From: Myxococcota bacterium
Lineage (GTDB): Bacteria > Myxococcota_A > UBA9160 > SMWR01
Length of the DNA: 64,000 nucleotides
Assembly: GCA_039030075.1 (NCBI GenBank)
Contig: JBCCEW010000001.1
Span: 352,227 to 416,226, forward strand
Direction of reading: 5' to 3'
Positions 37 to 9,374 of the stretch are shown here, one piece after another. The position numbers were made by a program, and so were the translations under genes. Numbering within the stretch: position 1 is the first letter of the stretch; the number at the start of each line of letters is the position of its first letter. The notes under the pieces were generated by a model. It did no database searches, was not told where the DNA came from, and saw nothing but the letters and a program-made list of their open reading frames with translations.

Positions 37-71
37 TGAGTAACGCATCAACTAGCCAAGGGAGGTGACTC

Positions 72-95
72 GTGAACGGTCCGGGCAATAACTAA
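72..95 (+). CDS. mccA: Candidate microcin C-type precursor heptapeptide (MccA-like)
   Basis: This 7-codon reading frame (GTG start, TAA stop) encodes M-N-G-P-G-N-N. A near-perfect Shine-Dalgarno sequence, AGGGAGGTGA, ends 3 nt before the start (GGAGG at 61-65, 6-nt gap). The peptide has the length of E. coli MccA (MRTGNAN) and the terminal asparagine that MccB enzymes adenylate. A hairpin terminator follows at 105-140, as a stem-loop follows mccA in the E. coli operon. A clear MccB homologue lies 1.6 kb downstream on the same strand. The same frame contains an upstream ATG at 36 that stops at 66-68, so it cannot extend the peptide. Gene finders skip ORFs this short. The product would be activated at its C-terminal Asn and joined to AMP, giving a Trojan-horse inhibitor of aspartyl-tRNA synthetase. 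The call is inference from size, sequence, translation signals and neighbourhood. Confidence 0.7.
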   Translation: MNGPGNN

Positions 96-104
96 AGGAA
101 AACC

Positions 105-140
105 GCGGGCGGAGGGCATGGCTCTCCGCCCGCTTTCTCT
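105..140 (+). terminator. Hairpin terminator/attenuator after the heptapeptide gene
   Basis: A 10-bp perfect stem, GCGGGCGGAG (105-114) with CTCCGCCCGC (124-133), has a 9-nt loop and is followed by TTTCTCTTT. It starts 9 nt after the peptide stop codon and ends just before the next gene at 147. Full termination would give an abundant short peptide mRNA, and read-through would express the membrane protein, as described for the mccA-mccB stem-loop of E. coli. Confidence 0.8.
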
Positions 141-146
141 TTCGTC

Positions 147-1148
147 ATGGAGGACGTTCACATAGGCAAGGAGGGCAATGGATTGGGCGATCTGATGGCC
201 TGGATCCTCTACGGGGTTTGGCTAGATGGCTTCGAGTTCCTTTCGAACAACGCGGACACCGTCATTGCGCTGGCTCAGTTCTTCTTGGCGGGAATGATCG
301 GTCTGTTCACCATCTATGCCTACATCTACTCTCGGCGCCGAGACAAACTCCAGTTCTTCCACAACAACTGGAACAAGCAACAGGACATCAACCTGCAATG
401 CCTGGTCAACGATGATGTGTTGAAGATCGTTGAGGGCCTGATCTACGGGCCGGATCATGAAGTCGACGTACAGGAGGCTCGGGCCTTCACATTCGCTTTT
501 CTTCATCTCAACAAGATCCAGAACAACTTCGAAGCGATGTCTCAGCGAGTCATCTCGCGCAGGGAGTACGTCGAGATGTCGCTTCCAACCCTTCGGCTAT
601 TCGCGCGGAGCAAGAATCTCATTTGCTACCTGGTGGAGCAGCGTGGCTACAGCCCTGAGTTCCGAGACTCGGTTGTTGAGCTGATCGCTGATCTGGATCC
701 TCTGGATCCGCCCCCCTTTATGTCCGAGATACCGGCTCTGCCCCGCGAAGTCTCTGGTGCGGTGCCTGCGATCGAGCAGGCCTCGGTGGGTGCAGCGGCG
801 GATAGAGATTCAGAGTTGGCGCCAGAACAGGTGTCGTCTCTGGTCGCACGGTTCAACAAGATCGTAATGAAGCGAGTCAGCCCGCTCGCTAGACCGCTCT
901 TGGCTGCTCCGGTGACGCATTTGGCGAGTGTCGGCTTCTTGCTGAATCCTATTCTGCTTGGAGCGCAGCTCTATCGCGCGATCACTACTTCACCGGCTGG
1001 ACTCTCCCCGGCGATGTTTGGCGGATTCGCGGCGCTGAACCTCTTGACTGCCCTGGCTGCGATTAGGACGCAAGATGCTCTCATGTTTCTTTCGTTTGCG
1101 CTGAGCTTCGTGATCTCGCTCTCGATCTTCGGGCTCATTGTTGTCTAG
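147..1148 (+). CDS. Integral membrane protein of unknown family, second gene of the mcc-like locus
   Basis: This 333-residue protein has one or two hydrophobic segments near the N terminus (about residues 17-34 and 39-62), then Arg-rich SRRR. A soluble helical region runs to about residue 240, and three hydrophobic segments fill the C terminus (about 250-272, 290-308, 312-333). It is not an MFS transporter and so does not resemble the usual microcin C exporter MccC (12 helices). I do not recognise the family. It lies directly behind the heptapeptide gene and its terminator and ends 6 nt from the convergent GNAT gene, so a role in export, membrane sensing or self-protection is possible, but this is only context. 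No strong ribosome site precedes the ATG; GCCCGCTTTCTC separates it from the terminator stem. Confidence 0.7.
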   Translation: MEDVHIGKEGNGLGDLMAWILYGVWLDGFEFLSNNADTVIALAQFFLAGMIGLFTIYAYIYSRRRDKLQFFHNNWNKQQDINLQCLVNDDVLKIVEGLIYGPDHEVDVQEARAFTFAFLHLNKIQNNFEAMSQRVISRREYVEMSLPTLRLFARSKNLICYLVEQRGYSPEFRDSVVELIADLDPLDPPPFMSEIPALPREVSGAVPAIEQASVGAAADRDSELAPEQVSSLVARFNKIVMKRVSPLARPLLAAPVTHLASVGFLLNPILLGAQLYRAITTSPAGLSPAMFGGFAALNLLTALAAIRTQDALMFLSFALSFVISLSIFGLIVV

Positions 1149-1154
1149 TCGCCC

Positions 1155-1631
1155 TCAGAGTTCGAGTTCATGGACTATCTCGAATTCTTGAAATCCGGCT
1201 GAGCGGTAGGCCGACCTTGCAAGCTCGTTCCCGGCGTATGCGACCACCTTGACGCTTGTGGCGCCTTCTTCCCGCGCCCATTCGATAGAGATGTCGATGA
1301 GCTGCTTTCCTATGCCCTTCCCTCTGTGGCCCTCGGCGACGCACATCGTGTGGATCTGGGCGAGGCGAACATCGTTGCGGTGAGTCATCTCTGAATCGGG
1401 GATCATTCTCGTGATCACGTAGCCAACAACCTGGCGGGTCTCGTCCTCGTAGACGAATGCCGCATGGTCTTCGAGCCTCTCGATCGCTCTTCGGAAGTAC
1501 ACGAGTGCTTCGTCTGTGAATGGAAAGGACAGGTTGGAACTGGGGACGTACTGGGCTTCCCATGCAAAAATCTGGCGATTCAGCTCCTGAATCGAATCTA
1601 GATCTACAAGTTGAGCCTCTCGGACAGTCAT
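1155..1631 (-). CDS. GNAT-family N-acetyltransferase, possible microcin self-immunity enzyme
   Basis: This 158-residue single-domain GNAT has the acetyl-CoA pyrophosphate-binding motif A, VAEGHRGKGIGKQL, around residues 98-111 (Q/R-x-x-G-x-G/A type), and a C-terminal NELARSAYRSAGF segment typical of the fold. It is divergent from mccB (98 nt between start codons) and convergent with the membrane gene. In known microcin C clusters the C-terminal domain of MccE, and stand-alone RimL-like enzymes, acetylate the processed aspartyl-adenylate analogue and give immunity. The same role fits here but is inferred. A role in tailoring, or an unrelated housekeeping substrate, cannot be excluded. Confidence 0.75.
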   Translation of the reverse strand: MTVREAQLVDLDSIQELNRQIFAWEAQYVPSSNLSFPFTDEALVYFRRAIERLEDHAAFVYEDETRQVVGYVITRMIPDSEMTHRNDVRLAQIHTMCVAEGHRGKGIGKQLIDISIEWAREEGATSVKVVAYAGNELARSAYRSAGFQEFEIVHELEL

Positions 1632-1675
1632 AATTTCGCTCGATTCAAGGTTGTCGTGGCGCCGAGATGGTGCGT

Positions 1676-1706
1676 TTGACGCGAATCACACAGACTACTC
1701 TACGAT
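1676..1706 (+). promoter_or_regulatory. Possible mccB promoter in the divergent intergenic region
   Basis: TTGACG at 1676-1681 is followed 19 nt later by TACGAT at 1701-1706, or at 17 nt by the weaker TCTACG. It lies upstream of the ribosome site GGGAG (1717-1721) and the preferred ATG at 1730. If real, it shows that translation cannot begin at the upstream ATG at 1667. Confidence 0.35.
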
Positions 1707-1729
1707 GCAACTCAATGGGAGTCCAGACG

Positions 1730-2764
1730 ATGTACGTATTGGCACCGTACTGTGAGGTGCGAAAGGTCGGCGATGCGTTTCACGTCGGGTTCGGTTCCGC
1801 CCGAACGATCGTCGATGATCCTGCAGAAGTAGACGGGCTGTTTCGAATCTTGGCCCAGTTCCGTACGCCTGCTGACCTCGAGGGGTTTCGGGCGGATCTG
1901 GTTGGCGAGCGTTCCGTTGAGCTTGTCGATCGCCTTGTTCGGAATCGGGTGCTCGTTCCTTCGAAGGATGTTCCTGAGTACAACCGGCATCACCGTGAGC
2001 AGCTGTACTTCCTGCTCGCTGGCGCTGCTCCGAACGACGTTTCCGGGCGGCTCGCGCGAAGTTCGGTGACGATCGTGGGTTGCGGGGGAATCGGCTCGCT
2101 AATGGCGCTCAAGCTTGCCACGGTCGGTGTGGGAGAGGTTGTCCTGATGGACGACGATCTTGTTGAGCCCCACAACCTTTCTCGCCAGTTCTTGTTTCGG
2201 GAGGGCGACGTAGGGTTTGCGAAGGTGGGTATTCTCAAGCGCGAGCTAGAGCTGCGGAACTCCAACGTTTCGATCGTGGGTGTCCCCGAACGCGCTCGAT
2301 TTGAACACGATGTCAACATACCCCGCTCGGATGTCCTGATCCTCGCGGCAGACGAGCCAGGCATCATTCCAAAGGCAAACGCGTACTGCATAGACGCTGA
2401 TCAGGCGTTCATGCATATCTGCTACATCAATGACATCGCTGCTTGGGGGCCGCTTGTAGTCCCGGGATCCTCGGGATGTTGGTCGTGCCAAGCCCACATA
2501 GGCAGCACGCAGTCCCAGCGCAGCTCTGAGGACCAGGAGGTTCTCGACGACATCAATGGGAGCTACACATGCCCGGTTATCTCGAGCGTTAGCTCTATCG
2601 CTGTGTCGCTGGCCTGCCTGGACGTGCTAAGGCACTTGGGTCGGTTCGGTGAGCCGAAGTCTCTCAACCATAGAATCGGACTTTGGACGCACGAACTCCG
2701 GTTCGAGTATCAGGACTTCAGCCGGAACCCGGGATGCGTAGACTGCGGACGGATGCCTTCATGA
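1730..2764 (+). CDS. mccB: MccB-type peptide adenylyltransferase (ThiF/E1-like)
   Basis: The preferred 344-residue product closely matches E. coli MccB (350 aa) in layout. A roughly 90-residue N-terminal peptide-clamp domain (start MYVLAPYCEV) precedes the E1-like adenylation domain. The domain has the glycine-rich ATP loop VGCGGIGS (about residues 116-123), an acidic strand MDDD, the SRQFLF arginine, DVGFAK lysine, YINDIAAWGPLVVPG, and two CxxC zinc knuckles (GCWSCQ and the C-terminal CVDCG). SLNHRIGLW matches the MccB C-terminal region. The enzyme is expected to use two ATP to convert the C-terminal Asn of the heptapeptide through a succinimide and attach AMP by an N-P bond. The ATG at 1730 is preferred over 1667 because GGGAG lies 8 nt upstream and the protein then starts where MccB does. 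It overlaps the next GNAT gene by ATGA. A ThiF-family enzyme of another pathway is less likely given the C-terminal match. Confidence 0.9.
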   Translation: MYVLAPYCEVRKVGDAFHVGFGSARTIVDDPAEVDGLFRILAQFRTPADLEGFRADLVGERSVELVDRLVRNRVLVPSKDVPEYNRHHREQLYFLLAGAAPNDVSGRLARSSVTIVGCGGIGSLMALKLATVGVGEVVLMDDDLVEPHNLSRQFLFREGDVGFAKVGILKRELELRNSNVSIVGVPERARFEHDVNIPRSDVLILAADEPGIIPKANAYCIDADQAFMHICYINDIAAWGPLVVPGSSGCWSCQAHIGSTQSQRSSEDQEVLDDINGSYTCPVISSVSSIAVSLACLDVLRHLGRFGEPKSLNHRIGLWTHELRFEYQDFSRNPGCVDCGRMPS

Positions 2765-3210
2765 CGCTTCGGATCACCTCGATGAGCCGCAATTGCCTGG
2801 AACCGACAATAGAAGTCGCAGTGCGAGCTTTCGGGGAGGAGACGCGCGCGGACGCAGTCGATGATTTCGAATACTCGCTCACGGAGCTGAAGTATCGGGC
2901 ACATACGCTTGTTGCGCTCGATTCGGACGTCGTAGTGGGAGCCGTTCAAGTGGTGTGGGGCTACCTGATGCCTGATACATACACCCTGGCCTGGCTTTGC
3001 GTCGATCCACCGCGCCAAAAGAACGGTGTCGGTACACTGCTAATGGAGAACGCGATCTCGTACACGTCACAGCGCTTGCTGTCGGGTCGCGTCGGTACGA
3101 TCTACCTGTCCGCGCTGTTTCGTCACGAATTCTACGAGCGGTTTGGATTCACTAGGGGACCGAAGAATCATCATGGTGCTCCTGTGATGCTCATGGTTGT
3201 AAACGACTAG
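2761..3210 (+). CDS. GNAT-family N-acetyltransferase coupled to mccB
   Basis: The 149-residue GNAT begins at the ATG that overlaps the mccB stop (ATGA, 2761-2764), so the two genes are translationally coupled. Motif A is seen as LCVDPPRQKNGVGTLLM (about residues 79-95), and the C terminus has FYERFGFTRGP, the usual late GNAT element. The tight coupling suggests a direct role in the same pathway, either immunity by acetylating the toxic aminoacyl-nucleotide or tailoring of the product. The longer frame from 2683 lies wholly inside mccB and has no ribosome site. This is the second acetyltransferase in the cluster; the two are dissimilar in sequence and need not share a substrate. Confidence 0.8.
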   Translation: MTLRITSMSRNCLEPTIEVAVRAFGEETRADAVDDFEYSLTELKYRAHTLVALDSDVVVGAVQVVWGYLMPDTYTLAWLCVDPPRQKNGVGTLLMENAISYTSQRLLSGRVGTIYLSALFRHEFYERFGFTRGPKNHHGAPVMLMVVND

Positions 3211-3420: not shown

Positions 3421-4662
3421 TCAATTATCGACTCCGGCGGCGGCGTTCTCGATCTGCTGGTTGATCAGCCCTCGAATGTCGGAGGGAAGGACGTCCTTGG
3501 CGTCGAGCGAGCGCCAGGCATCCAGCGTTCGCGCTGTGGTTTCGCCTGTGAGCTCCCAGATCGGACTGACAGGAAGGCGAGCAGTGTCGGTGAAACGCCG
3601 GACCTGATCCTTGGTGATTCCACTAAGGCTGCGGCTCTTGCCGAAACTGAGCCCGAGCTTGTCCTTAGCCATGTAGGGAACCGTTGAGACGAAGTCATAG
3701 GCGGGGGCAAGTATGGGTGTGCGCTGGTCCGGGTAGAGAAGCGACCAGTTCTTGAGGTGCATGTCGCCGTTTCCGATTAGCACCGTGAAGACGAGTCTTC
3801 GCACGAACTCTCCGGTGCCCTCATCCCCGATCTCTGCCCGAAGGACGGCTGCGATGTTGGCGTAGCTGTGGCCTTCGTACTTGTCATCTGGGAAGGCGCC
3901 GAAGACCTGGGCGAAGTCCTCCATGTGGACGCGCTGGTTTGCAGGGCCACGGTCGAACCGCTCGATCGCCAGCGCGTTCCCTTTGAGGCTGGTGGCGTCT
4001 TCCGGTAGTCCCTGGATTTCTTCGATGGGAAGGAGCTTGGTCGCGGGCACGTCGATGCCGATGGCTCGCGCGAGCTCCAGCATGGCGAATTCGTTCTCTG
4101 GAACGGCAGCGAAACGCATGTCGGGGAGCTTGACGATCCAGGAGCCGCCCATTCCGTCGACAGGAATGGTCAGGCCTCCGTTCGCCTCCTGGATCGCTGA
4201 GAACTTCAGCTGCACGCCGGCGAGGGAGAAACGGAGGGCGGAGTCAGGCTCAGCCTCGACGTCGCCGTCGTGCCCTTTGGGCGCTCTCTCCGGCTCGCTC
4301 GTGTGGTCATGGGGTGAGACGACGACAGCACCAGGTAGATCGGCTCCAAGGGCGGCGAGCAGAAAGAACTCGCGCTGTTGCTTCACGCCCGCTCGCTCGG
4401 CGAGATATCTCCGAAGGTGGCCTTCGGGCAGAAGATTGGAGAAGAAGGGGGGTAGGCGTGCTGATTGTCTTCGAATGCTGGAGACGAGTTCGCCGCCGCT
4501 CCCCTTGAACGAGAGGCTGAGAGCCGGCCGCTCTGGATCTTCGATGTAGTCCTCCTCAAAGGCGAAGATATGCTGGTCGCCCGCGAGGCGGTTGATGACG
4601 CCGATACGACGGCCATGAAGCTCCACCGCAAGCGCCCTAACTGTGTGGAGGTCAGGTCTCAT
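3421..4662 (-). CDS. hipA: HipA-family serine/threonine kinase toxin
   Basis: This 413-residue HipA-type protein has an N-terminal HipA domain containing PPFFSNLLPEG and a C-terminal kinase domain. Key elements are LAGVQLKFS (the SGxQPK-like ATP-loop segment), ERFDR, the catalytic IGNGDMHLKNWSL and the metal-binding PAYDFVST. E. coli HipA phosphorylates glutamyl-tRNA synthetase and causes growth arrest; the same target is likely but not shown. I chose the ATG at 4662 because GGGAGG lies 6 nt upstream. It overlaps hipB by 11 nt, so the pair is one operon with antitoxin first. All catalytic residues appear present, so the kinase is probably active. Confidence 0.92.
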   Translation of the reverse strand: MRPDLHTVRALAVELHGRRIGVINRLAGDQHIFAFEEDYIEDPERPALSLSFKGSGGELVSSIRRQSARLPPFFSNLLPEGHLRRYLAERAGVKQQREFFLLAALGADLPGAVVVSPHDHTSEPERAPKGHDGDVEAEPDSALRFSLAGVQLKFSAIQEANGGLTIPVDGMGGSWIVKLPDMRFAAVPENEFAMLELARAIGIDVPATKLLPIEEIQGLPEDATSLKGNALAIERFDRGPANQRVHMEDFAQVFGAFPDDKYEGHSYANIAAVLRAEIGDEGTGEFVRRLVFTVLIGNGDMHLKNWSLLYPDQRTPILAPAYDFVSTVPYMAKDKLGLSFGKSRSLSGITKDQVRRFTDTARLPVSPIWELTGETTARTLDAWRSLDAKDVLPSDIRGLINQQIENAAAGVDN

Positions 4663-5011
4663 CGATGGCCTCCCAATCAGCACGGGTCACATTGGAGGTG
4701 TCTTCGATGTAGAGCGCTTCGGCGCTTCGGCCGTCATCACCGCTTTGGTGGTGATAGTCGCGGAGTAGGGCGTTAACTCCGGGCACGAGGGCGCGCGGCA
4801 CGAGGATCAGGTCGTGGTCAAGGACGCGGACGAGGTCGAGAAGGGTGTCGTATCGGGGGGCAACCCTGCCGGTTTCGATCCAGGACACGTGAACCTGGGG
4901 CAGGCCAGCGCGTTCGCCGAGCTCGCGCTGACTCCAGCCGCGGTTCAAGCGCGCCTGTTTGAGTTCCAGGCGCATTGCTTCAGGTAGGCTGTTGAGTCGG
5001 GTAGATTTCAT
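4652..5011 (-). CDS. hipB: HipB-family XRE antitoxin and operon repressor
   Basis: The 119-residue protein has a helix-turn-helix of the Cro/C1 (XRE) class at about residues 15-65 (KQARLNRGWSQREL, then VSWIETGRVAPRYDTLL) and an acidic C-terminal tail. HipB proteins bind HipA and repress the operon. AGGA lies 6 nt before the ATG at 5011. The start codon lies within the first of four operator-like repeats (5010-5120), which fits direct autoregulation. The tail of hipB overlaps hipA. Confidence 0.92.
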   Translation of the reverse strand: MKSTRLNSLPEAMRLELKQARLNRGWSQRELGERAGLPQVHVSWIETGRVAPRYDTLLDLVRVLDHDLILVPRALVPGVNALLRDYHHQSGDDGRSAEALYIEDTSNVTRADWEAIDET

Positions 5012-8051: not shown

Positions 8052-9374
8052 ATGAGCGACTACTTGATCCAGAGGAACGGGTACTTCTACTACTACCGGC
8101 GCGTTCCCAAACATCTGGCTCCCATCGAGCCCCGCGAGCACATCAAGATCTCGCTACGCACCAGGGACAAGGCCCTGGCCCGAAAACGCGCCCTCATTCA
8201 CAACGAGAGCACCGAACGCTATTGGCGTGAGCTTGGCGCCGCGCCCACAATCGAGGATGGCGACCAATACCGCGCTGCGGTCCAAACCGCGCGCCTTCAT
8301 GGCTTTGTCTATCGCGACATCATTGATCTCTCCGCCAACGCGGAGCTCACCGAGGTTGTGAATCGCCTCCTCGCGTTACGAGATGCCACCCCAGCGGCAG
8401 AAGGCAATTCGCTCCTCCGCGATGCCCTTCTGGGGACAGCGAGCAGGCCCGAGGTGCTCCTAAGTCAGGCCTTCGACATCTATCGCCCACGTTGCGTTGA
8501 CCGCTTATCCGGAAAGTCGGATCTACAGATCCGAAAATGGGAGAACCCGCGGCGACTCGCGATCGAGAACTTCATTCGTGCTGTAGGAGACAAGCCGATC
8601 GCTGATGTCTGCCGCAAGGACGTCCTTGCGTTTCAGGATTGGTGGATCGCGCGTATTCGGGACGAGGGCATAAGATCCGCCACGGCCAACAAGCAGTTGC
8701 GGCAGGTCAGAGACATCCTGTCGAGTGTCGTCATCGCATGCGAGCTGAGTTCTGATGATGCGGATGTACACACTATGTTCGCGAAGATCCAGTTCCTCTC
8801 TACGGATGGGAGCCGCCGGTCGTTCGAGGCATCCTACGTCCAAGACGTTCTTCTTACAGGCGACGCATTGGATGGGATGAACAACGAATCCCGAGCGCTC
8901 GTCTACCTCATGGCTGATACCGGTGCTCGCGTGTCGGAGATCTCAGGCCTTCTCGCTGAGGACATCCGCTTGGATACGCGCATCCCGTTTATTCACATCC
9001 GCGCGAATGAGAAGCGTGACCTTAAGACCCCGAGCTCCGAGCGTAAGATTCCACTCGTTGGAGCAGCACTCTTTGCAGCGCAACAATTTCCGGACGGCCT
9101 GTCGCGATACTCGAGTGCGGATAGTGCCTCGAGCCAGGTCAACAAGTACCTCAGAGAGAACCGGCTGAATCCAACGAAACAGCATTCGCTCTATTCGCTG
9201 CGACACACCTTTAAGGATCGGCTGCGTGACGTTCAGGCCCCCGAAGAGGTCATCGACAACCTCATGGGTCACAAATCTCGGGGGCCCAAGTACGGCCGCG
9301 GGCACATCCTCGAAACGAGGCTCGAATGGCTAGAGCGAATCGCCTACGACGCGTCCGAAATCACATGGGTATGA
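8052..9374 (+). CDS. Tyrosine recombinase/phage-type integrase
   Basis: The 440-residue integrase begins with an RNGYFYYYRRVP segment and basic helices (DUF6538-type N terminus). A SAM-like core-binding domain follows (about 140-235), then the catalytic domain: DTGARVSEISGL (first Arg, near 295), YSLRHTF (second Arg, with Tyr in place of the usual first His), LMGHKS and KYGRGH with the candidate nucleophilic Tyr. The start follows the second 12-bp repeat array; GATCTGAAACC is only a weak ribosome site. Its partner attachment site may be the tRNA-like core at 7866. It is unrelated in sequence to the integrase at 9938-11041. Confidence 0.92.
   Translation: MSDYLIQRNGYFYYYRRVPKHLAPIEPREHIKISLRTRDKALARKRALIHNESTERYWRELGAAPTIEDGDQYRAAVQTARLHGFVYRDIIDLSANAELTEVVNRLLALRDATPAAEGNSLLRDALLGTASRPEVLLSQAFDIYRPRCVDRLSGKSDLQIRKWENPRRLAIENFIRAVGDKPIADVCRKDVLAFQDWWIARIRDEGIRSATANKQLRQVRDILSSVVIACELSSDDADVHTMFAKIQFLSTDGSRRSFEASYVQDVLLTGDALDGMNNESRALVYLMADTGARVSEISGLLAEDIRLDTRIPFIHIRANEKRDLKTPSSERKIPLVGAALFAAQQFPDGLSRYSSADSASSQVNKYLRENRLNPTKQHSLYSLRHTFKDRLRDVQAPEEVIDNLMGHKSRGPKYGRGHILETRLEWLERIAYDASEITWV

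What the first reader, a model, noticed from the sequence alone, without database searches (positions are those of the whole stretch)
72..3210. A microcin C-like peptide-nucleotide biosynthesis locus
The plus-strand order is heptapeptide gene, terminator, membrane protein, (divergent GNAT), mccB, GNAT. The ThiF/E1 protein matches E. coli MccB over its length and its zinc knuckles. The peptide ends in Asn as every known MccA does. The set lacks MccC (MFS exporter), MccD, the MccE decarboxylase domain and MccF, so the tailoring and export would differ from the enteric type. I know of no such cluster in this kind of GC-rich, deltaproteobacterial-like background, though I cannot search.
Basis: partly seen in the sequence, partly recalled or inferred. 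Interest (0 to 1): 0.93.

Follow-up and report, generated by a model that had tools for sequence, protein, structure and literature searches.

The report
Microcin C-like cluster with SemiSWEET protein
A lower-GC stretch of a bacterial genome carries a seven-codon gene ending in asparagine and a gene for an MccB-family enzyme, which together likely make a microcin C-like peptide-nucleotide antibiotic, next to a very rare membrane protein whose tail is predicted to fold like a SemiSWEET transporter and would export the product.

Summary
A GTG-started seven-codon frame (fM-NGPGNN, 72-95) with a strong ribosome-binding site and a 13-pair terminator lies upstream of an enzyme (1730-2764) that matches crystallised E. 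coli MccB end to end (211 bits; next best ThiF 56) and falls within the MccB heptapeptide group in trees, in a separate clade with nine database proteins. Eight related loci carry such a heptapeptide before mccB; five of those peptides start MN, as here. So this is a real mcc-type locus; its peptide-nucleotide chemistry is likely but untested. The host is less surprising than claimed: an mcc cluster is published from the myxobacterium Hyalangium minutum. What is new is the gene behind the terminator: a two-domain membrane protein without a Pfam match and with six relatives found, in a locus where no MFS/ABC pump homologue was found. Its last 80 residues are predicted to fold like SemiSWEET/MPC carriers (a relative's model against 4rng: 1.5 A over 82 columns, but E 0.4; profile score 29.0 against 19.3 for the best shuffle), with the sugar-site Trp and Asn replaced. 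One relative and one MccB-clade protein come from single contigs of equal length (4,435). Exporter is my best guess, immunity the main rival. New variant of a known kind.

The parts
60..67 (+). Shine-Dalgarno GGGAGGTG of the heptapeptide gene
   Evidence: sequence; counted as a match
72..95 (+). mccA-like gene: GTG-started heptapeptide (M)NGPGNN, stop included
   Evidence: heptapeptides ending in Asn in 8 of 32 related loci under a looser rule
105..142 (+). intrinsic terminator, 13-pair stem and T-rich tail
147..1148 (+). membrane protein of a very rare family (start at 147, or more likely at TTG 183); candidate exporter or immunity protein
   Evidence: no Pfam/NCBIfam/PADLOC match; family P0033-P0039
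216..707 (+). its N-terminal hydrophobic helix and conserved helical domain (residues 12-175 counted from TTG 183)
   Evidence: alignments A3/A4; no fold assigned
888..1145 (+). its C-terminal SemiSWEET/MPC-like domain (residues 236-321 counted from TTG 183), predicted
1155..1631 (-). GNAT acetyltransferase, divergent; role in the system unclear
   Evidence: Pfam PF00583 64.2 bits
1730..2764 (+). mccB: MccB-family peptide nucleotidyltransferase
2761..3210 (+). GNAT acetyltransferase, start overlapping the mccB stop; candidate immunity enzyme
   Evidence: Pfam PF13508/PF00583; ATGA overlap

Best explanation
The locus likely makes a microcin C-like peptide-nucleotide: the MccB-family enzyme would join a nucleotide (AMP predicted) to the C-terminal asparagine of the heptapeptide fMNGPGNN, and the rare membrane protein with a predicted SemiSWEET-like tail would carry the product out of the cell. 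The terminator behind the seven-codon gene would give many short mccA messages and fewer read-through messages into the membrane-protein gene. mccB and the GNAT that overlaps its stop codon would form a second transcription unit, and this GNAT would acetylate processed aspartamide-nucleotide left inside the producer. Shown by sequence: the heptapeptide frame with its ribosome-binding site and terminator, MccB family membership with the checked active-site and zinc residues, the small size of the membrane-protein family found, and no homologue of the MFS and ABC pumps searched for in 76 kb. Predicted: the SemiSWEET-like fold. Inferred: the chemistry, export by the membrane protein, immunity by the GNAT, and the transcription units.
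For: MccB match over the whole length, 211 bits against 56 for ThiF; 20 of 20 checked positions equal E. coli MccB; trees; heptapeptide and terminator beyond chance; 8 of 32 related loci with a heptapeptide ending in Asn before mccB; 18 of 35 comparison loci keep an MFS or ABC pump gene in the cluster, whereas here none was found and the membrane protein follows mccA directly; SemiSWEET-like tail by profile with controls and by model; P0004 (MccB clade) and P0035 (membrane family) each come from one contig and both contigs are 4,435 bases. A RiPP cluster with a small non-MFS, non-ABC exporter exists: EamA-type PaaC of pantocin A (PMC12250964, passage).
Against: 17 of 35 comparison loci (16 Nocardiopsidaceae and L030) also lack a homologue of the pump queries, so a pump gene next to mccB is not obligatory. 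mccB is not in the mccA transcript here: a minus-strand GNAT lies between. Co-occurrence of the membrane family with mccB rests on one window and one equal contig length. Fold evidence is indirect: no Foldseek E-value under 0.3; the window's own model is weak (pLDDT 63.8) and its top two VIA rows are unrelated STAT5a chains; the tail of the window protein alone scores 19.7. The GNAT does not match PF13302, which MccE and five other GNATs scanned do match. SemiSWEET-type carriers are known for sugars and small acids (recalled), not peptides.
Confidence: 0.52

Rival explanations
1. The peptide-nucleotide is made as proposed, but the membrane protein is a self-immunity or sensing protein, or serves another purpose, and export uses a pump encoded elsewhere or does not occur.
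For: 17 of 35 comparison mccB loci lack a homologue of the pump queries in the DNA held. The best-conserved part of the protein is its helical N-terminal domain, not the carrier-like tail.
Against: The gene follows mccA directly, the tail looks like a carrier, and a candidate immunity GNAT is already coupled to mccB.
Confidence: 0.3
2. The locus is a decayed or incomplete mcc cluster on a mobile island and makes nothing.
For: Lower GC than the rest of the window, a nearby recombinase and HipBA pair, no pump or tailoring genes found.
Against: The five reading frames are intact, 20 of 20 checked enzyme residues are kept, ribosome-binding site and terminator are intact.
Confidence: 0.11
3. The enzyme is a ThiF-like RiPP enzyme of another kind that modifies a different substrate, and the heptapeptide is coincidental.
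For: ThiF-like enzymes catalyse several RiPP reactions (PMC12250964, sections and passages; PMC12150305, start of abstract in the listing). AU p 0.085 leaves some room.
Against: 211 bits to MccB over its length against 52 for PaaA; placement inside the heptapeptide group; chance figures for the heptapeptide.
Confidence: 0.07

Closest known systems
E. coli microcin C cluster mccABCDE-F (MccA MRTGNAN; L004)
   Same: Seven-codon precursor ending in Asn behind a strong Shine-Dalgarno, terminator after mccA (PMC6495379), MccB matched over its length, a GNAT present
   Different: Precursor starts with GTG and reads NGPGNN; a membrane-protein gene, not mccB, follows the terminator; no homologue of MccC, MccD, MccE or MccF found nearby
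Hyalangium minutum mcc cluster (PMC7157772, passages seen)
   Same: mcc-type cluster in a myxobacterium, MccB-type enzymes acting on Asn-ended peptides
   Different: There: two precursors, the one whose length I saw being 36 residues, two mccB genes, three genes for an ABC-type transporter and a HIT hydrolase; none of these pump or HIT genes found here
mccA-mccB-MFS(-GNAT) loci of Chlamydiota, Verrucomicrobiota, Proteobacteria and a Deltaproteobacteria MAG (L016, L024, L025, L027, L028, L033)
   Same: MccB-family enzyme; heptapeptides such as MNTVPGN or MNSVVRN 80-272 bases before mccB in five of these six (L025 is cut 60 bases before mccB)
   Different: MFS pump gene next to mccB; no member of the rare membrane family in these genomes
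SemiSWEET / mitochondrial pyruvate carrier fold
   Same: Predicted three-helix fold of the C-terminal 80 residues; Ser 275 and Phe 282 columns shared
   Different: Fused behind a conserved helical domain; SemiSWEET Trp column is Thr in 7 of 7 and Asn column Phe, Cys or Tyr; no Pfam match

Membership tests
MccB (microcin C nucleotidyltransferase) | Full-length match including the N-terminal peptide-binding part | tested here: met
   residues 2-341 to 6om4, 3h5a, 3h5n at 211 bits
MccB (microcin C nucleotidyltransferase) | E1 active-site residues and two CxxC zinc pairs | tested here: met
   20 of 20 checked positions equal E. coli MccB (the roles are recalled E1 knowledge)
MccB (microcin C nucleotidyltransferase) | Groups with MccB, apart from ThiF/MoeB | tested here: met
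   27-row group 98/98, outgroup split 100/99; AU test of the alternative p 0.085, not rejected
MccB (microcin C nucleotidyltransferase) | Nucleotide transfer to the C-terminal Asn of its peptide | not testable with these tools
   needs purified enzyme and synthetic peptide
MccA heptapeptide precursor | Seven residues, C-terminal Asn, strong Shine-Dalgarno (criteria of PMC6495379) | tested here: met
MccA heptapeptide precursor | Close to mccB | tested here: inconclusive
   1,634 bases away with two genes between, against 47-236 in the seven other heptapeptide loci measured
Minimal mcc cluster (precursor, MccB, exporter) | MFS MccC or ABC exporter gene | tested here: not met
   no hit at E 0.01 in the window and 12 kb upstream; exporters of other kinds not excluded
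MccE-type immunity GNAT | GNAT of the PF13302 kind | tested here: not met
   2761-3210 matches PF13508/PF00583 only; MccE and five other GNATs match PF13302. The minus-strand GNAT passes PF13302 narrowly (27.4 bits, cut-off 25.4)
SemiSWEET/MPC superfamily (C-terminal domain) | Three-helix carrier fold | tested here: inconclusive
SemiSWEET/MPC superfamily (C-terminal domain) | Sequence-profile relation | tested here: inconclusive
   hhalign score 29.0, probability 66.8 over 53 columns; 0 of 150 shuffles and 0 of 41 MFS windows as high; global mode only 13.0 probability
SemiSWEET/MPC superfamily (C-terminal domain) | Sugar-site Trp and Asn (role recalled) | tested here: not met
   Thr in 7 of 7, and Phe/Cys/Tyr, at those columns; so not a sugar SemiSWEET
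SemiSWEET/MPC superfamily (C-terminal domain) | PQ motif in the first helix | tested here: inconclusive
   outside the hhalign match; extrapolated register puts no Pro or Gln there, while the HMMER register sets invariant Gln 262 on the Q and residue 261 on the P

The most novel reading that the evidence does not exclude
A new branch of microcin C-like systems in which the MFS or ABC pump is replaced by a membrane protein made of a conserved helical domain and a SemiSWEET-type half-carrier, so that a fold known for moving sugars and small acids has been turned into an exporter of peptide-nucleotide antibiotics and is co-expressed with the precursor gene by read-through of its terminator.
Probability: 0.38. 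Interest if true: 0.74.

Novelty: new variant of a known kind. Interest (0 to 1): 0.6.

Why it matters
Peptide-nucleotide antibiotics block aspartyl-tRNA synthetase by a Trojan-horse route, and the clusters I read about draw on a short list of pumps and immunity enzymes. A deep MccB clade with its own rare membrane partner would add a new export or immunity principle and a new precursor sequence. The substrate test is cheap: one synthetic heptapeptide and one purified enzyme. If the SemiSWEET-like tail moves a heptapeptide-nucleotide, it would widen what that fold is known to carry.

Tried and rejected
Considered and set aside. (1) ThiF/MoeB identity of the enzyme: set aside on scores and trees. 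(2) DUF4760 for the N-terminal part of the membrane protein, an idea by eye: hhalign 11.9 against three DUF4760 proteins, with 83 of 150 shuffles as good. (3) A heptapeptide nearer to mccB: none in the window by the rule. (4) MccC, MccD, MccE, MccF, MccH, ABC or GNAT homologues from mcc loci: no tblastn hit at E 0.01 in the window and 12 kb upstream (11 queries); no S66 (MccF-type) match in the genome. BLASTP of either GNAT with MccE gave nothing. (5) Contigs of P0002-P0010 and P0034-P0039: not fetched; two scans of genome contigs with the enzyme and a viral-contig scan with the membrane family did not yield them, and metagenome scans had a cap of zero. The membrane family was found in 1 of 377 genomes of the phylum (own one), 1 of 90 of the class (own), 0 of 19 genomes that hold other mcc loci and 0 of 58 of another phylum, two of them also among the 19; no match in plasmids. 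Both database searches for it scored only the roughly 8,000 candidates sharing most words, so six relatives is a lower bound. (6) Defence reading: the enzyme's PADLOC hits were E1-type matches in the 25 of 33 rows shown. (7) Literature: eight searches. 'Microcin C' with 'SemiSWEET': 0 papers. SemiSWEET with bacteriocin (5 papers) and with RiPP (2): listings seen; I read passages of one, PMC10094308, which reports an unrelated sucrose-type SemiSWEET. The library lacks most subscription papers and the mBio 2014 survey I tried, so absence in print is not shown.
Full report
What is in the sequence. Positions 60-142 hold GGGAGGTG, a GTG-started seven-codon frame (M)NGPGNN ending in two asparagines, and a terminator with a 13-pair stem (one G-U pair, no mismatch). 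A TGA two codons before the GTG means the frame cannot be longer. Then come a membrane protein (147 or, more likely, 183 to 1148), a GNAT on the minus strand (1155-1631), the ThiF/E1 enzyme (1730-2764) and a GNAT (2761-3210) that begins inside the enzyme's stop codon.

Is the heptapeptide more than chance? On both strands of the window there are 2 frames of 6, 7 or 8 codons ending in Asn, and 1 of them, this one, has a Shine-Dalgarno match of 5 bases or more. In 3 Mb of Markov sequence with the window's dinucleotides there were 11 such 7-codon frames, none with that match. Under a looser rule (4-base match, within 1.5 kb upstream) 8 of 32 related loci have such a peptide (L016, L021, L024, L027, L028, L029, L033, L056) and 24 do not, among them all 16 Nocardiopsidaceae loci. 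Five of the eight begin with MN, as here; these five are MAGs of Chlamydiota (two), Bacillota and Proteobacteria (two). By a script that asks for a stem and T-run, 3 of 7 such loci have a terminator-like hairpin between peptide and mccB, one of them weak (-2.5 kcal/mol), and 4 have none. PMC6495379 (introduction, bioinformatics and discussion sections read) says that most MccA precursors have seven residues, that all end in Asn and follow a strong Shine-Dalgarno, and that E. coli has a terminator between mccA and mccB.

The enzyme. phmmer against PDB chains gives MccB first (three distinct sequences, 211 bits, residues 2-341), then ThiF at 56 bits over residues 103-254. In NCBIfam the 25 of 27 families shown are ThiF/MoeB-type and others, all under their cut-offs; the nearest to its cut-off is a TOMM leader-binding model (35.0 of 36.9 bits); no MccB model is listed. 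Twenty of twenty checked positions, covering arginines 86 and 89, GCGGIG, the Asp/Asn/Arg/Gln/Lys active-site set and both CxxC pairs, equal E. coli MccB (roles recalled). A protein search returned 32 proteins at E 0.001, its own entry included, among 7,997 scored candidates; P0002-P0014 are 34-52% identical over 88-100% of the query. In a quick tree of 48 rows and a careful tree of 34 the window enzyme and P0002-P0010 form one clade (100; 100/100). It lies within the group that holds E. coli MccB and the heptapeptide loci (98; 98/98); ThiF and MoeB lie outside. Holding the clade together with ThiF/MoeB costs 12.4 log units, AU p 0.085, not a rejection at 0.05. The position in the adenylating group suggests AMP as the nucleotide; this is inference.

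What is missing and what stands in its place. tblastn with 11 proteins of mcc-type loci (MccC three, MccD, MccE, MccF two, MccH, a GNAT, two ABC) found nothing at E 0.01 in the window or the 12 kb upstream; it did not even report the window's GNATs, so remote homologues would be missed. Of 35 comparison loci, 18 hold a homologue of MFS or ABC pump queries in the cluster (several of the queries come from these loci); the 17 without are 16 Nocardiopsidaceae loci, all with a HIT (MccH) gene behind mccB, and L030. Some loci are cut short, and other pump types were not searched. A pump-less mccB locus is therefore not unique. The window's membrane protein has no Pfam, NCBIfam or PADLOC match at E 0.01. 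Two searches of 5.8 billion proteins found seven members including its own entry, a lower bound. It is not found in 376 other genomes of its phylum, nor is the enzyme at E 1e-20. Its relative P0035 and the MccB-clade protein P0004 each come from a single contig, and both contigs are 4,435 bases long. I take this as probable linkage; the contig could not be fetched.

How it most likely works. Short mccA messages end at the terminator and are translated many times; read-through makes the membrane protein. MccB, from its own unit with the coupled GNAT, adds the nucleotide to Asn7. The membrane protein exports the product and the GNAT blunts what is degraded inside. Only the gene anatomy and family relations are shown. 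No sigma-70-like promoter was found by consensus. The GNAT is not clearly of the MccE kind: MccE and the five other GNATs scanned match PF13302, this one does not.

Comparison and novelty. The cluster belongs to the mcc kind by precursor and enzyme. PMC7157772 (passages) describes a validated mcc cluster in Hyalangium minutum with two precursors, two mccB genes, three genes for an ABC-type transporter and a HIT hydrolase, so the host group alone is no surprise. PMC9239234 (passages) names precursor, MccB and an export gene as the minimal set. The review PMC12250964 (part of section 2, section 2.4 and passages) holds no mention of SemiSWEET. I class the locus as a new variant of a known kind.

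Context. GC is 0.55-0.585 in the cluster genes, 0.60-0.62 in the 12 kb upstream, 0.58-0.60 from 2 to 10 kb of the window and 0.69 in the rest; a HipBA pair and a tyrosine recombinase lie downstream. The locus probably arrived on a mobile island.

Noticed in passing
L056:6920-9243 (IMGVR_UViG_3300050175_000025): A viral contig carries MLGKTRN, an mccB-type gene and an MFS gene in a row, next to genes with phage tail and DNA-transfer protein matches: a phage- or prophage-borne mcc-like operon. The two genes match PHROGs of unknown function (phrog_19840, phrog_2034).
   Followed up: partly
window 3421-5011 (-): HipA kinase and HipB-like antitoxin pair directly downstream of the cluster.
   Followed up: no
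window 8052-9374 (+), GC step near 10 kb: Tyrosine recombinase with DUF6538 near the step from 0.60 to 0.67-0.71 GC, the likely edge of a mobile island.
   Followed up: partly
L003:3314-5557 (about 9 kb upstream of the window start): A protein joining a trypsin-like domain and a non-specific DNA/RNA endonuclease domain.
   Followed up: no
L009-L015, L017-L020, L022, L023, L026, L032, L035: 16 Nocardiopsidaceae mccB loci all have a HIT (MccH) gene behind mccB, no hit to the pump queries beside it, and no heptapeptide by my rule; their precursor and exporter are unexplained.
   Followed up: partly
L007:3737-8073 and L079:1018-5369: Acinetobacter and Moraxella plasmids carry two ThiF-family genes in a row followed by an ABC protein; the Acinetobacter one lies beside BREX genes.
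   Followed up: no
L037-L042: ThiF relatives of MccB type in Hermodarchaeota MAGs (24-28% identity); the two I placed in a tree fall outside the MccB group.
   Followed up: no
P0035, P0036: Two longer members of the membrane-protein family have about 110 extra N-terminal residues with a hydrophobic start, perhaps an additional outward-facing domain.
   Followed up: no
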